From Aradus depressus (Eukaryota; Arthropoda; Insecta; Hemiptera; Aradidae), in the NCBI GenBank assembly GCA_963662175.1, contig OY759216.1:37837087-37901086 (forward strand): 64,000 bases of DNA. Reading direction: 5' to 3'. Positions 41,620-46,657 of the stretch are shown piece after piece; within the stretch, counting starts at the first letter, position 1, and each line of letters opens with the position of its first letter. Both the position numbers and the translations under genes were made by a program. Below the pieces are notes generated by a model. The model ran no database searches and had not been told where the DNA came from. It saw nothing but the letters and a program-made list of their open reading frames with translations.

Positions 41620-41778
41620 ATGTCCAGAAAAGGTAAGAAGTGGTCACCCGAAGAAATAAATAGATTTCTGGAAGAATACGAGAAACATCCTTCTTTATGG
41701 GATCGAAACTCTTGTTTATACAGAAGCAAAAGTAAAAGGGAAGAGAGTTTGAAATATATTGCCGAAGCAATGTCAAAG
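41620..41778 (+). CDS. MADF paralogue 1, exon 1
   Basis: It starts ATG TCC AGA and ends GCAATGTCAAAG|GTTTTT in phase 0. The 53 codons encode the first MADF helices: W8, FLEEYEKHPSLWD and REESLKYIAEAM. The donor GTTTTT is weak, but the same break occurs in paralogue 2 (AAG|GTTTAT). Confidence 0.88.
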
Positions 41779-44700
41779 GTTTTTATTTTTATGTTATTTG
41801 TTTTTTTCAATTCGTGAGCTCATTGAAAAGGGATTTTACATGGGGTATTCCGCGCCAAGAATATACAAATCTCATTTAAGATCCCTATCCTAAATAAGTA
41901 TATGAAGATGGCTGATGTAGTGAGAAGTGATTATTTCACAGGTTGTCAAATAAAATGTAGTATGACCTCTCACAGATTTTTCGTTCCTTTTATTTTTTCT
42001 GCGTAACTTCATCACAACAGTAAAGTGCCTACGTTGAGCGAGAAGAGCAAAAAAAAAAGAATCTGAGAGGTCATACTCGACCGAGTAACATTTACATTAG
42101 GGTTTTTTTTGGCTACTCCGAACCATAAGAAGTCTTATTATAGTAAATAGCAAACAAAAACATACAAGATACTATGTTTTTAGGGCATTTTTGCAAAAAA
42201 TCTACTTTAATTGTAAATTATATAAATAAACAAATACGTAGTGAAGTCCGGGTAAAAACGTAGTAAAATAACTAACTATAATTGTAAAAATGAAGTATTG
42301 CTGCAATGATTATTATATGGTTTAATATTTCTTGTAGGGTACTACTACATTATTATATCAAAATTTCAAAAAATTTATGAAACAAGTTGCCGATTTGTAT
42401 ATTTATGGTATAGAATAGCCGATACATATTTTACGTTTTGCCAAGAGTAGTTAGCGTATCTGACTTGGCTCGGTCGTTTCTAGACAAACGCTGTCATGTG
42501 ATCTTATCTTTTATTTAAATTACAAAGTCATGTTTGCTCTTCTCGCTCAAAGTTGGCACTTTACTCTTGTGATGAAGCTATGCAGAAAAAATAAAAGGAA
42601 CGAAAAACAAAAGTAAATTAACAGTTCGCTGCTGGTAGGAGTAGTCTCACCAAAACATTATTAAGAGATATTATGCCCTGTACCGCATTTTTGTCTTTGA
42701 AAATTAAACCATTTTTACAAAGTTATTTCAACAGTTTTCCTGCCGTTATCTTAACAGTGTTTGACGATTCTCCTTGGAGTCTTATATACTACGTCAATGT
42801 TAATTTGACCCTCTAATCATTGTTAATGAATTCTTAATTTTATTTTTAGGTGATTCCTGATATCAATTTAGATGTTGTAAAGGAAAAAATAAAAACCCTT
42901 CGAAATACGTACACTACAGAGAGGACCAGAGTGTTGAAATCGTTGGACAACTCATCTTCATCAGTCAGGGCCGGATACAGGCCTACCTTGGAGTGGTACG
43001 ACACTGCAGACAGGTTCTGGAGGGAGATTGTGGAGCCTCGGACCTCTAGAGTCAACCAGGTAATTTTAGTTCAATGATATTTGTATACTGAGCATGAGAT
43101 TCCGCGCAGCCATGTTGTCATCTGTTAGGCAAGGGACGCACACAGTCAGAATGGCCTCAATAGGATCTTGATGGCTTGTGGCTCGTCCTTCGGGTTGGCC
43201 ATTGACACATCGACTCGTTACTCTAGAATTATTGTATTGGTAACAAGAATTGAGTTTTCCCTCTAAACACAGAAGGCGGGCTACGTTGAGATATGCCTTT
43301 CTAATGCTGATCCATCGAACGAACAAGGTTTCACTATAGGCGCAGAACTCTTCATATCCATAATATCCGACAAGTAGTCAAAATATTTTTAAAAATGCCT
43401 TACTAAACAAATAAATCAATTTTGAACCTGTTTGTTAAACAACCTTTATTTCCTTTAAAAGGTTCTCAAATTGTCTTTTGTGTTCTAAATTCAAAATTTC
43501 TATCTTGTTTGTGGTTTCGTTTATTTTTGTGACTTATGTCCTGACTTCGTTTCGTTGACAAGAGCCCGACTCTACAGTGAGGTCCTAAACTTTGTCTACT
43601 CAGGTTCAGTTACATAGGGGTAGAGGTGTTTTTAACGAGTACGTAACATTGCACAAGCTCGGGACAATCGCTCAACGTCCCGTCCGGAACTCGGCCGGGT
43701 TTCGAACCCGTGCTCTGGAGCACAGTAAGTATGGTTTTGAAGGTTAAGCACTCCTCCATAACCTATTTCGGGTCCCGAGCCTTTGCGATGTCAGGTACTC
43801 GTTAAAGACACCCCTTTACCCTAGGATAAATAGTTAATCCTATCGAAAATTGGTTCTTATTAATTTCCAGGAGTCAATATGCCCTCGAACAAAGTTATAG
43901 CACCCCATATGATGAACAATAAATTTCCATAGAAAGTAGTTTAAAGTAATGGTTATTATGTTTTTACTTTTAGGATAGTTCATTGGACATGACCCAGGAT
44001 CCCTTGCAAGAAGCTAAGAGAGAAACATCTTTCTGCAACGTCTCGTTACGCAGTCCCAGCAGTTTATATGGAGCTGACCGCTCCTTCGGTAATGTTCTAT
44101 TGTATTTATGTCTGTATGTAATAGTTAAAGGGGTTAAATGTGAAAATTTACTGGCTACATTTAGTTTGAAATTCAGTATTCCAATTTATAATTTAAGCTT
44201 CCAAGCTTGAATATATGCGAAAACCTAGGTTTATCTTTTTTCGACTGGGCTATCTTCCCTGAAAGCTATCATTTCCCAGTAATGTACACTTTTCTTCTCA
44301 TAGCTGGCTGCTGAGTTTGGTAAGGCCTTCCTCTTTGGAACTGGGCTAAAAAGGCATTAACACTGCCTAAGGAGATATTGTCTAAAAGATTCAATACATT
44401 TCCGTTGAATTGGTTAGACTATGCACGAGTATGGTTCTACTGGTTCGAGTTTGCCATAACAAGACCGAAACAAGTAATGAATGGAACCTGTAGTAAAATT
44501 CTGGACTATTTATTGCTTGCGAAAATCCGAGCTCGAGTTTTCAACGGAATTCGCGCTTTAAGGTCTTCTGAACACGTTTTGACCATTTTCACGATGATGT
44601 CTGTATGTATGTGTTAGGAACTTTGTGAGCGTTCTAACTCCGTAAAGTTCTCAAATTGCGAATCTCAAATCACCGATTAGTAGCAATTAACTTGAACTAT

Positions 44701-46657
44701 GAGATGATTATTTTGGGGCCTAAGTACATTTTACAAGATACCGCTTATAATTATGACCTAATCAAAAGTCAAGGCCGCCCGGCTTTCGAAATAGTAACCG
44801 CAAAACCGTCCTAAAATGACATCTTCAAACCTATTTTTCCAGACGTTTGCTCGATTTATGCGAAAACAGTTAATCATATCGAAAACTTCGATTCGTTCCT
44901 TATTCAATTTACAACCATCCTCAAATTTGAGATCGGATCAGCACGACCAAAGTTATAGCGCCCCAAAAAATTACTGAAAAATATATAAAATTAAGAAAAA
45001 TAAAAATATATTTGATGTGGCCGTTGCAAGACTTCCTTATACCAACCACTTTTGCACACATTACTCTCGCTCTCGCAAATTCATTTTATACTGGCATTAG
45101 TATAAGGTTTGAACGACGGTTATAATATGAGTAGGGAAGAAAAGGGCATTCTGGGCCCACGATAATCCGCAAGATGGCGGCGTCCCCCACCCCAGCCCGA
45201 CCTCGCCTCCGCCCGGCATGGCCTTGCCCCCACTCCAGCCTTGCCCCTCGCCCCGACCTCGTCCCCCGCCCCAGCATGGCCCCAGGGCCGTGTCCCCTCC
45301 CCATGCCCCCATTATTCCTTTTGGTTTTCGATATCGAAAGAACTAGAAGTATCTTATAGCTTTTTATTTTCATAGTAATAATACATATCCCAGATTAGAG
45401 CGTGTTAAGGTACTTAGAATGTTATTCAAGGCTCTAAGCTGAAACCCTTTATAACTCCAAAAAGTTATTTAAAATAAACATTTTTTTGCAGTCGCTTTCT
45501 CCGAGCCATGCATCAATTGCGCAGCATACCGTTGTGTGGTCTGCGGCCGGTGCGCAGACAACGTACCCCTTCATATGCTGTCGCCAACAAGTGTCCACAT
45601 TATCTGCAAAGAAGAGGACGAAACAATTTTACAATTTTATGACAATTTAAAATGTTCGCTATGCGAAAATAATTTAACTGAAATCCACCCAGATATTGTA
45701 AACTGGTGCCGCAAATGCGATGCCGAGTTAGGCAAAATACTCACAGACCGAGCTCTAAAAGAAAATTATGTAATATTACTATGAAAATAAAAAGCTATAA
45801 GATACTTCTAGTTCTTTCGACATCGAAAACCAAAAGAAATAATGGGGGCATGGGGAGGGGGCACGGCCATGCCGGGCGGAGGCGAGGCCGGGCTGGGGTG
45901 GGGGACGCCGCCATCTTGCGAATTATCGTGGGCCCAGAATGCCCTTTTCATCCCTACTAATATGATTATAAGCTTTCTAGTATATCGGACACAGATCGCA
46001 AAAATGTAGTAAGAAAGTTACTGTTGTCATACCTTTCTGTGGAGACCGTCGTCACTGGCTGCTGGTCGAGTACTGTGGGCGAGCGCTTTCGATGTGAAGA
46101 CATCATCTTCAAGCCACTGTTAATGTTGTACTGTGCTGTAGTACAACATTAACAGTGGCTTGAAGATGATGTTTTCACATCGAAAGAGCTTGCCCATAGT
46201 ACTCAACCAGCAGCCAGTAACGACTGTTTCCGAAAGGTATGACAACAGTAACATATTTACTGGCGGAACTAACCCCTTGGTAAGAAAGTCCTATTATGGC
46301 CACATATATTTTACTGTTTTGTCCATTTATATTATTGTATTTGTTATTATTTCCTTAGTTTCAGATTGTACACCGAGTAAACAACCAAGGGTTAATGAGA
46401 GGACTCCAATGAAACGTAAAATACACTACGAAGATGAGGAAGAAGACACATGTGATAAAAATGTAAATGAATTGACTCAAGAAAAAATTCGATTGTTGAA
46501 ATTGGAAGAAGACCTAATCAAGAGGAAGTATCAAACGGAATTGGCGTACATGAAAGAGGAACATGACCTGAGGATGGAGTTTCTGGCCAGAAAGGAAGAG
46601 CTTCAGTATAAGATACTTGAAGCAGAACTTCTGCTAAAACAGAGGCAGCTTCAGTAA
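41620..46657 (+). CDS. MADF-domain protein, paralogue 1 (four exons, 258 aa)
   Basis: A probable nuclear DNA-binding protein of the MADF (Adf1-like) group. Exons 41620-41778, 42850-43059, 43974-44088 and 46365-46657 sum to 777 bp with matching phases and AG/GT borders. The N-terminal domain (about residues 8-120) has the MADF pattern: a Trp at the start (KKWSPEEINRFLEEYEKHPS), LWD, Tyr-Arg-Ser, then VVKEKIKTLRNTYTTERTR and a late aromatic block EWYDTADRFW. Exon 3 is Ser-rich (RSPSSLYGADRS). Exon 4 has an acidic/basic stretch and a long charged coiled coil (about 195-258) ending QRQLQ. All splice sites are mirrored in paralogue 2 at 49601-55059. Such genes can derive from Harbinger-type Myb/MADF accessory genes; which applies here is unknown. 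Intron 3 carries a transposon with a competing terminal exon. I chose ATG 41620 because it aligns with 49601. Confidence 0.88.
41779..42849. repeat. Intron 1 of MADF paralogue 1 with an inverted-repeat element
   Basis: Arms at 41977-42050 and 42533-42607 are reverse complements (TTTTTCGTTCCTTTTATTTTTTCTGC... and ...GCAGAAAAAATAAAAGGAACGAAAAA; GAGCGAGAAGAGCAAA inside), about 90% identical. The left flank (AAGATGGCTGATGTAGTGAGAAG) recurs at 47021-47044. No frame lies between the arms. It is a probable non-autonomous DNA element. Confidence 0.65.
42850..43059 (+). CDS. MADF paralogue 1, exon 2
   Basis: The acceptor is TATTTTTAG and the donor AACCAG|GTAATT. The 70 codons complete the MADF domain: VIPDINLDVVKEKIKTLRNT, a Ser-rich loop, then RPTLEWYDTADRFWREI. 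The loop is eight codons longer than in paralogue 2. Confidence 0.9.
43525..43810. mobile_element. SINE-A pieces in intron 2
   Basis: 43525-43715 (minus) shows GACTTATGTCC...ACTTCG, TGGACAAGAGCCCGACTCTACAGTG-type, ACGAGTACGTAACATTGCAC and the head GGGTTTCGAACCCGTG. 43770-43810 shows a plus-strand body piece (CGGGTCCCGAGCCTTTGCGATGTCAGGTACTCGTTAAAGAC). These are two overlapping or rearranged copies. Confidence 0.6.
43974..44088 (+). CDS. MADF paralogue 1, exon 3
   Basis: The acceptor is TACTTTTAG and the donor CCTTCG|GTAATG. The 115 bp are 38 codons plus one base, ending in phase 1: DSSLDMTQDPLQEAKRETSF, then LRSPSSLYGADRSF. The length and both phases equal those of paralogue 2's exon 3. Confidence 0.88.
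44500..44995. repeat. Interspersed repeat in intron 3 (family F)
   Basis: Blocks GGGGCCTAAGTACATTTTACAAG and ATAATTATGACCTAATCAAAAG reappear, inverted and diverged, at 28290-28345 and 18311-18350 (GGTCACAAATATAAGCAGTG, TTGTAAA...TTTAGGCCC). The start (AAATCCGAGCTCGAGTTTTC, CTTTAAGGTCTTCTGAACACG) matches 20220-20290. Non-coding. Confidence 0.5.
45124..45964 (+). mobile_element. 829-bp DNA transposon with long GC-rich TIRs inside MADF intron 3
   Basis: The element spans 45130-45958 and is flanked by the 6-bp direct repeat AATATG (45124-45129 and 45959-45964). The left arm 45130-45380 and right arm 45774-45958 are about 97% identical reverse complements; the left arm has a 66-bp GC-rich insertion. 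Arms start AGTAGGGA and include GGGCATTCTGGGCCCACG and CGCAAGATGGCGGCG. They are GC-rich, almost CpG-island-like, in an AT-rich locus. The 393-bp core holds a splice acceptor and a cysteine-rich exon. No transposase is present, so the element is non-autonomous. I cannot assign the superfamily; a 6-bp duplication is unusual. It is absent from intron 3 of paralogue 2. Confidence 0.88.
45492..45784 (+). CDS. Transposon-borne cysteine-rich terminal exon
   Basis: A strong acceptor (CATTTTTTTGCAG|TC) is followed by an open frame of two bases plus 97 codons ending in TGA at 45782-45784. The stop lies inside the right inverted repeat and is followed almost at once by AATAAA (45786-45791). The peptide has paired cysteines suggesting zinc binding: C-x2-C-x4-C-x2-C-x2-C (CINCAAYRCVVCGRC), then CSLC near 45655 and CRKC near 45712. 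The acceptor phase fits MADF exon 3, so splicing 44088 to 45492 would give an in-frame MADF fusion of the same total length. It could instead be the last exon of the parent element's own gene. I do not recognise the family. Confidence 0.55.
46017..46252. repeat. Long fold-back repeat just upstream of MADF exon 4
   Basis: Arms 46017-46132 and 46140-46252 are about 90% identical reverse complements with a 7-base loop (inner arm CAAGCCACTGTTAATGTTGTACT; outer arm GTTACTGTTGTCATACCTTTC). It ends about 110 bp before the exon 4 acceptor and would form a long hairpin in the pre-mRNA. Confidence 0.85.
46365..46657 (+). CDS. MADF paralogue 1, exon 4 (native last exon)
   Basis: The acceptor TAGTTTCAG is followed by two bases and 97 codons. 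DCTPSKQPRVNERTPMKRK is followed by an acidic patch and a charged helix: RKYQTELAYMKEEHDLRMEF, LARKEELQYKILEAELLLKQ, RQLQ and TAA. Its coiled-coil end is nearly identical to paralogue 2, supporting selection on both. Confidence 0.88.

What the first reader, a model, noticed from the sequence alone, without database searches (positions are those of the whole stretch)
45124..45964. A transposon carrying a ready-made terminal exon sits in phase inside a MADF gene
The 829-bp element (AATATG duplication, about 97% identical inverted arms) contains a strong 3' splice site, 97 open codons with paired cysteines, a stop and AATAAA. Its acceptor needs a phase-1 donor, which is what MADF exon 3 (44088) supplies: G + TC gives Val, then the Cys-rich peptide. 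The host's own exon 4 has the same phase and, by chance, the same coding length (293 bp). Splicing into the element would replace the coiled coil with a zinc-binding-like tail and end the transcript early: a natural gene trap that makes a fusion protein instead of just breaking the gene. The phase match has a one-in-three chance of being accidental.
Basis: partly seen in the sequence, partly recalled or inferred. Interest (0 to 1): 0.88.

Follow-up and report, generated by a model that had tools for sequence, protein, structure and literature searches.

The report
Deleted Maverick transposon inside MADF intron
The element is a shrunken leftover of a virus-like Maverick transposon in an intron of an animal gene; it does carry a working-looking splice site and an open reading frame in phase with the gene, but the fit looks accidental and nothing yet shows that the fusion protein is made.

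Summary
The anatomy is confirmed: 829-bp element, 6-bp duplication AATATG, arms 96.3% identical where aligned, acceptor at 45490-45491, 293-nt exon with stop, AATAAA at 45786, in phase with MADF exon 3. The interpretation changes. Relatives in the same genome are ends of Maverick/Polinton elements (integrase, PolB, 6-bp duplications, AGTAGGG ends). The "ready-made exon" is a deletion product. Its acceptor is the last intron of a dUTPase gene whose introns sit where those of the presumed host dUTPase gene sit, so it looks captured from an animal. Its coding part is a separate, conserved Cys-rich Maverick gene that lost its start codon. In the ten parental loci where the acceptor was read it is phase 0; a deletion seen only here makes it phase 1. 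A separate dUTPase/Cys fusion on C6 keeps the other frame. The window peptide has lost 11 codons, gained one and changed a Thr found in 13 of 13 other copies, though all eight invariant cysteines remain. In a predicted hairpin the poly(A) signal is paired. Splicing into it is possible; design or selection is unsupported; RNA could not be tested. New variant of a known kind.

The parts
45124..45129 (.). target-site duplication AATATG, left copy
   Evidence: three other copies in the genome also have 6-bp duplications (CCCAGG, TTTTAC, AGTATT)
45130..45385 (+). left terminal inverted arm, starts AGTAGGG
   Evidence: matches the ends of Maverick elements on C14, C4, C7 and C1
45386..45409 (+). last 24 nt of the penultimate exon of a Maverick dUTPase gene, joined to the arm by a large deletion (4-base CATA shared at the join)
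   Evidence: the same exon in L011 matches Pfam dUTPase at 5.8e-13
45410..45491 (+). complete last intron of the dUTPase gene (GT...AG), source of the strong acceptor
   Evidence: same intron in the ten related loci where it was read (L009, L011, L012, L014, L016; L018, L019, L020, L022, L024); the script printed nothing for L023, and L021 and L027 were not tried
45492..45501 (+). first 10 nt of the dUTPase last exon; the rest and the intergenic stretch (about 185 nt) deleted
45502..45784 (+). Cys-rich Maverick reading frame without its start codon, with a net 33-nt loss near 45538 and a 3-nt gain; TGA at 45782-45784
45767..45958 (+). right terminal inverted arm, 64 bp shorter than the left
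45786..45791 (+). AATAAA inside the right arm, fully paired with 45363-45368 in the predicted fold of the whole intron
45959..45964 (.). target-site duplication AATATG, right copy
41620..41778 (+). host MADF gene exon 1
42850..43059 (+). host MADF gene exon 2
43974..44088 (+). host MADF gene exon 3, phase-1 donor
   Evidence: constrained between paralogues (dN/dS 0.17)

Best explanation
The element is a non-autonomous, internally deleted Maverick/Polinton that integrated with a 6-bp duplication into intron 3 of a host MADF gene. Internal deletions turned two neighbouring Maverick genes into one stretch that looks like a terminal exon: the last intron of a dUTPase gene (itself apparently taken from an animal with its introns) gives the acceptor, a separate small Cys-rich gene gives the reading frame, and the terminal repeat gives the AATAAA. 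In the MADF transcript the splicing machinery can in principle choose this acceptor instead of exon 4. Most likely it does so rarely: the two arms flank it as a long hairpin that pairs the poly(A) signal, and the normal exon 4 is intact. When chosen, the product would be a MADF protein with a Cys-rich tail. Shown: anatomy, origin, deletions, phase. Inferred: low use, no selected function.
For: Related copies form ends of larger elements: C14:1993892-2012543 and C4:5730827-5746269 have this arm at both ends and matching 6-bp duplications. The other end of the C14 element carries an rve integrase (3.2e-14), next to a weak chromodomain match (0.18, below cut-off); a like frame is visible in the C4 element (not scanned). 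The C14 element also carries a PolB frame 60% identical over 494 residues to a locus that matches DNA_pol_B_2 at 6.1e-33. Five close parents align with the window core apart from two internal deletions, one 3-nt insertion and a few substitutions. The acceptor is phase 0 in the ten loci where it was read. The Cys gene looks to be under purifying selection among Maverick copies: dN/dS 0.06-0.19 in 8 of 9 pairs, the ninth undefined, several with saturated dS. The window against its two nearest copies gives 0.41 and 0.32, junction codons included. In 13 of 13 other copies aligned the Thr that is Ile in the window is kept, and none has the 11-codon loss. Hairpin.
Against: Both indels in the window reading frame are multiples of three, which chance gives in 1 of 9. 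All eight cysteines invariant in the seven-sequence alignment survive, and the lost loop is also shortened in a relative (L027). Against two distant relatives the window peptide gives dN/dS 0.09 and undefined, which mostly reflects the older history. Pfam found nothing in the parent PolB frame itself, so that identification rests on its 60% identical relative. Capsid, ATPase and protease genes were not looked for. No RNA data: the rate of use is a guess.
Confidence: 0.82

Rival explanations
1. Active alternative terminal exon: a real fraction of MADF transcripts splice 44088 to 45492 and end in the element, giving a regulated MADF protein with a zinc-binding-like tail (host-transposon fusion by exon capture).
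For: The acceptor comes with a complete dUTPase intron found in the ten parental loci where it was read; phase, stop and AATAAA all fit; two in-frame indels and eight retained invariant cysteines.
Against: Only three substitutions assignable to the window branch in the aligned coding part outside the joins, two of them amino-acid changes, one at a site identical in 13 of 13 other copies: neutral-looking, but few. Poly(A) signal paired in the predicted hairpin. No RNA evidence.
Confidence: 0.1
2. Gene-trap family: the element is one of many transposons built to land in introns and supply a terminal exon, so copies should show sense orientation and phase-1 bias.
For: Only the phase match of this copy.
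Against: Only the window matched the whole element among the 34 candidates scored. The other short derivative recognised, 1400 bp on C1 with duplication AGTATT, carries pieces from the other end of the element and no such exon. A second dUTPase/Cys fusion on C6 is in the other frame (phase 0).
Confidence: 0.02
3. RNA-level role instead of protein: the long inverted arms inside the MADF intron make a hairpin that yields small RNAs against the Mavericks, and the open frame is a bystander.
For: Very stable hairpin, z-score -27; in the fold of the whole intron 186 of 264 left-side bases pair with the right arm; many Mavericks in this genome as possible targets.
Against: Any transposon with long arms folds this way; no small-RNA data.
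Confidence: 0.06

Closest known systems
Maverick/Polinton elements (vertebrate set, PMC8097293; section 7 and passages read)
   Same: 6-bp target duplications, terminal repeats of hundreds of bp, ends of the AGT...ACT type, integrase and PolB in the parents, parent size about 15 and 19 kb
   Different: Ends read AGTAGGG rather than (AGT)2; parents carry a dUTPase with introns, while that paper reports no introns in intact elements; the window copy is a gene-poor deletion product
Host-transposase fusion genes by exon capture (Cosby et al. 2021 as described in PMC12062965, passages seen)
   Same: Transposon in a host intron, sense orientation, transposon acceptor and coding stretch in phase with a host DNA-binding domain
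   Different: No transcript known here; the captured part is not a transposase but a Cys-rich Maverick protein; the exon is a deletion chimaera; no conservation shown
Mavericks carrying cellular cargo genes in nematodes (Widen, as described in PMC10680173, one passage seen)
   Same: Maverick with a gene of cellular origin as cargo
   Different: Here the cargo is a dUTPase that kept its introns, and its last acceptor has become a potential host-gene trap

Membership tests
Maverick/Polinton (deletion derivative of) | 6-bp target-site duplication | tested here: met
   4 of 5 end pairs of this repeat family examined, the window included, have identical 6-bp flanks; the fifth pair (C14, 9312 and 9323 kb) does not and is probably not one element. 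A more distant pair on C5 was looked at but not counted
Maverick/Polinton (deletion derivative of) | long terminal inverted repeats | tested here: met
   256 and 192 bp in the window; 258-301 bp in the C14 and C4 parents
Maverick/Polinton (deletion derivative of) | terminal motif AGT or AG repeated | tested here: inconclusive
   AGTAGGG: first AGT present, second only in part
Maverick/Polinton (deletion derivative of) | retroviral-type integrase in the parents | tested here: met
   rve 3.2e-14 near the repeat of the C14 parent
Maverick/Polinton (deletion derivative of) | family B DNA polymerase in the parents | tested here: met
   frame in L041, C14 parent, 60% identical over 494 residues to a DNA_pol_B_2 locus; direct Pfam scans of that frame gave no family
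Maverick/Polinton (deletion derivative of) | capsid, ATPase, protease genes in the parents | not tested
   the middle of the parents was left unread
Host-transposon fusion gene | spliced fusion transcript | not testable with these tools
   no RNA data at hand
Host-transposon fusion gene | fusion frame under purifying selection | tested here: inconclusive
   three substitutions assignable to the window branch outside the joins, two of them amino-acid changes; too few to tell
MITE family | many similar short copies | tested here: not met
   one copy of this form among the 34 scored candidates and the 150 scored of 492; such counts are lower bounds

The most novel reading that the evidence does not exclude
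Mavericks of this genome captured a cellular, intron-containing dUTPase next to a small Cys-rich gene at the element's end. Because the two genes lie about 0.2 kb apart, deletions repeatedly collapse them into single fusion exons with a tried acceptor and a poly(A) site (window in phase 1, C6 in phase 0). Such derivatives are natural 3' gene traps, and in the window one has landed in phase in a DNA-binding-domain gene and makes a MADF/Cys-rich fusion protein.
Probability: 0.1. Interest if true: 0.75.

Novelty: new variant of a known kind. Interest (0 to 1): 0.42.

Why it matters
Host genes sometimes gain domains by splicing into a transposon. This locus shows how such an exon can arise before any selection: a captured cellular acceptor, a viral-type coding stretch and a poly(A) signal brought together by deletion. 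It also indicates that Mavericks can carry a spliced cellular gene, while the vertebrate survey seen here reports intronless genes, and it points to a conserved, unnamed Cys-rich Maverick gene.

Tried and rejected
Rejected: ready-made exon of a transposon family (one copy found; phase 0 in the parents read). Rejected: paired cysteines as a chance open frame (a real gene by its dN/dS between copies). Considered: the 33-nt loss as an ancestral variant; none of 13 other copies aligned has it, though L027 has a smaller gap in the same loop, and match lengths suggest that some decayed subtelomeric copies also have gaps there. No relatives of the Cys-rich protein in the large protein collection (one sequence as query), IMG/VR or PDB; Pfam gave only weak matches below cut-off, several of them zinc ribbons. 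Literature: the listings for Polinton with dUTPase showed no title on a Polinton dUTPase; passages of two of those papers were seen. Further listings; passages also of PMC2836005. No claim of absence from print goes beyond these. Counting non-autonomous copies in phase-1 introns is not possible with one copy. The species was not identified; that it is an animal is my inference. No structure prediction was run.

Full report
What is there. The window lies in a 698-Mb genome, contig C3. The element covers 45130-45958 and is flanked by AATATG on both sides. Its arms are 256 and 192 bp; 183 aligned bases agree and 7 differ, with 68 gapped positions. The host gene is intact: four exons, 258 residues, a MADF domain at 6.4e-12. 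A tandem paralogue in the window has the same four-exon structure and phases, and the pair is constrained (dN/dS 0.29 overall, 0.39 in exons 1-3, 0.17 in exon 4).

Where it comes from. A search of the same genome with the element gave 92 matches from 34 candidates, all scored. They show the arm at both ends of much larger elements: C14:1993892-2012543 with duplication CCCAGG and C4:5730827-5746269 with TTTTAC. A 1400-bp derivative on C1 has AGTATT. Of five end pairs of this family examined, the window included, four have identical 6-bp flanks; the fifth, on C14 at 9312 and 9323 kb, does not and is probably not one element. One end of the C14 parent holds an integrase frame (rve 3.2e-14). A PolB frame from the same parent is 60% identical over 494 residues to a C7 locus that matches DNA_pol_B_2 at 6.1e-33, though Pfam reported no family for the parent frame itself. 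Size, ends, duplications, integrase and PolB make the parents Mavericks (compare PMC8097293). I left the middle of the parents unread.

How the exon arose. Aligned with five close parents, the window core is the same sequence minus two internal stretches, plus 3 nt and a few substitutions; a third, large deletion brought it next to the left arm. That large deletion joins the arm directly to the penultimate exon of a dUTPase gene, sharing CATA at the join. Next, the first 10 nt of the dUTPase last exon are joined to codon 4 of a separate small gene, which removes that gene's start codon. Last, a net 33 nt are missing inside the small gene, with two filler bases. The strong acceptor is the end of the dUTPase gene's last intron; two dUTPase exons of L011 match Pfam at 5.8e-13 and 2.3e-6, and the final dUTPase motif (my translation of the sequence: RGNKGFGSTDL) follows the acceptor. 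In the ten related loci where it was read, this acceptor is phase 0 (five, five; the script printed nothing for L023, and L021 and L027 were not tried). The window's phase-1 frame therefore does not come from the parents; it was made by the second deletion.

A captured cellular gene. The presumed host dUTPase gene lies at about C9:9562358-9563438, with a last exon further downstream. The Maverick gene has introns at the same places: the second in phase 1 between DVG and AGV, and the third in phase 0 six residues before the RG of the last motif. The first matches at its acceptor and phase, but the host donor was not located. The simplest reading is capture of an animal dUTPase gene as DNA, introns included; the source species is not determined. 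Split dUTPase exons lie within 1.2 kb upstream of the Cys-rich gene in 19 of 52 hits chosen by hand from the 150 scored.

The Cys-rich gene. Seven aligned members share eight invariant cysteines. Among Maverick copies nine pairs were compared: dN/dS is 0.06 to 0.19 in eight and undefined in one, with saturated dS in several. So it looks like a real, constrained gene of unknown role; only weak Pfam matches below cut-off were found, several of them zinc ribbons, and no relatives in the other collections searched. The window copy keeps the eight cysteines but has the 11-codon loss, one extra codon and Ile at a Thr kept in 13 of 13 other copies. Against its two nearest copies its dN/dS is 0.41 and 0.32, junction codons included; against two distant ones 0.09 and undefined. 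Outside the joins three substitutions can be assigned to its branch, two of them amino-acid changes: what one expects without constraint, but too few for a test.

A second fusion. On C6 (L038) another, distant copy has its dUTPase last exon joined to the Cys-rich gene in one open frame, in the dUTPase's own phase 0. The two genes seem to have been collapsed at least twice, with different frames. That argues for deletion-prone neighbours rather than for a device tuned to phase-1 introns.

How it would work. In the MADF transcript, donor 44088 could join 45492 instead of 46365. The predicted fold of the element has an energy of -463.9 kcal/mol against a shuffle mean of -230.1; in the fold of the whole intron 186 of 264 left-side bases pair with the right arm and the AATAAA is fully paired with 45363-45368. 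The acceptor lies in the loop region, in part within small local stems. I expect mostly normal splicing to exon 4 with some leakage into the element, and poor cleavage at its poly(A) site. This is inference; no RNA data were available.

Verdict. It is a new variant of a known kind: a Maverick deletion derivative that could act as a trapped terminal exon. The most novel reading, a living MADF/Cys-rich fusion from a recurrent fusion-exon source, has a probability of about 0.1.

Noticed in passing
G000 contig ends, e.g. C1:137846-691689, C6:47679394-47808944, C9:32258-476048; L028, L029, L030: A decayed piece of the same Cys-rich gene recurs every 50-80 kb or so near many contig ends, mostly forward at starts and reverse at ends, with a few exceptions in strand and place. 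Three 4-kb samples from C1, C6 and C9 are 99.85-99.95% identical and also hold a gag-like frame and a PolB scrap, named by eye: looks like a long subtelomeric tandem repeat shared by chromosomes. rRNA content was not tested.
   Followed up: partly
G000, e.g. C6:46493786/46502943, C2:28046147/28055636, C1:5570814/5579999, C13:36744918/36751956: Many long open PolB frames (up to 1356 aa), a good number in outward inverted pairs 7-10 kb apart (91 of 608 candidates scored); Cys-gene copies of about 49% identity show the same pairing. Suggests Maverick-like elements whose PolB lies inside very long terminal repeats.
   Followed up: no
G000:C14 (16.4 Mb): This small contig holds 18 of the 52 selected Cys-gene hits and many PolB hits; possibly a sex or B chromosome, untested.
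   Followed up: no
G000:C14:7026404-7066048 (L026, L032): Tandem array with a period near 1120 bp whose units contain a stretch 77-80% like the tip of this terminal repeat.
   Followed up: partly
L038, C6:23184698-23185483: dUTPase last exon fused in one open frame with the Cys-rich gene in a distant copy.
   Followed up: partly
L033, L034 and 18 further rows: Twenty dUTPase matches with an intronless 144-residue frame scattered over the contigs, probably a second mobile family; the two read have the same protein.
   Followed up: no
window 46072-46200: Another inverted repeat in the same MADF intron: arms of 61 nt, 93% complementary, 7 nt apart.
   Followed up: no
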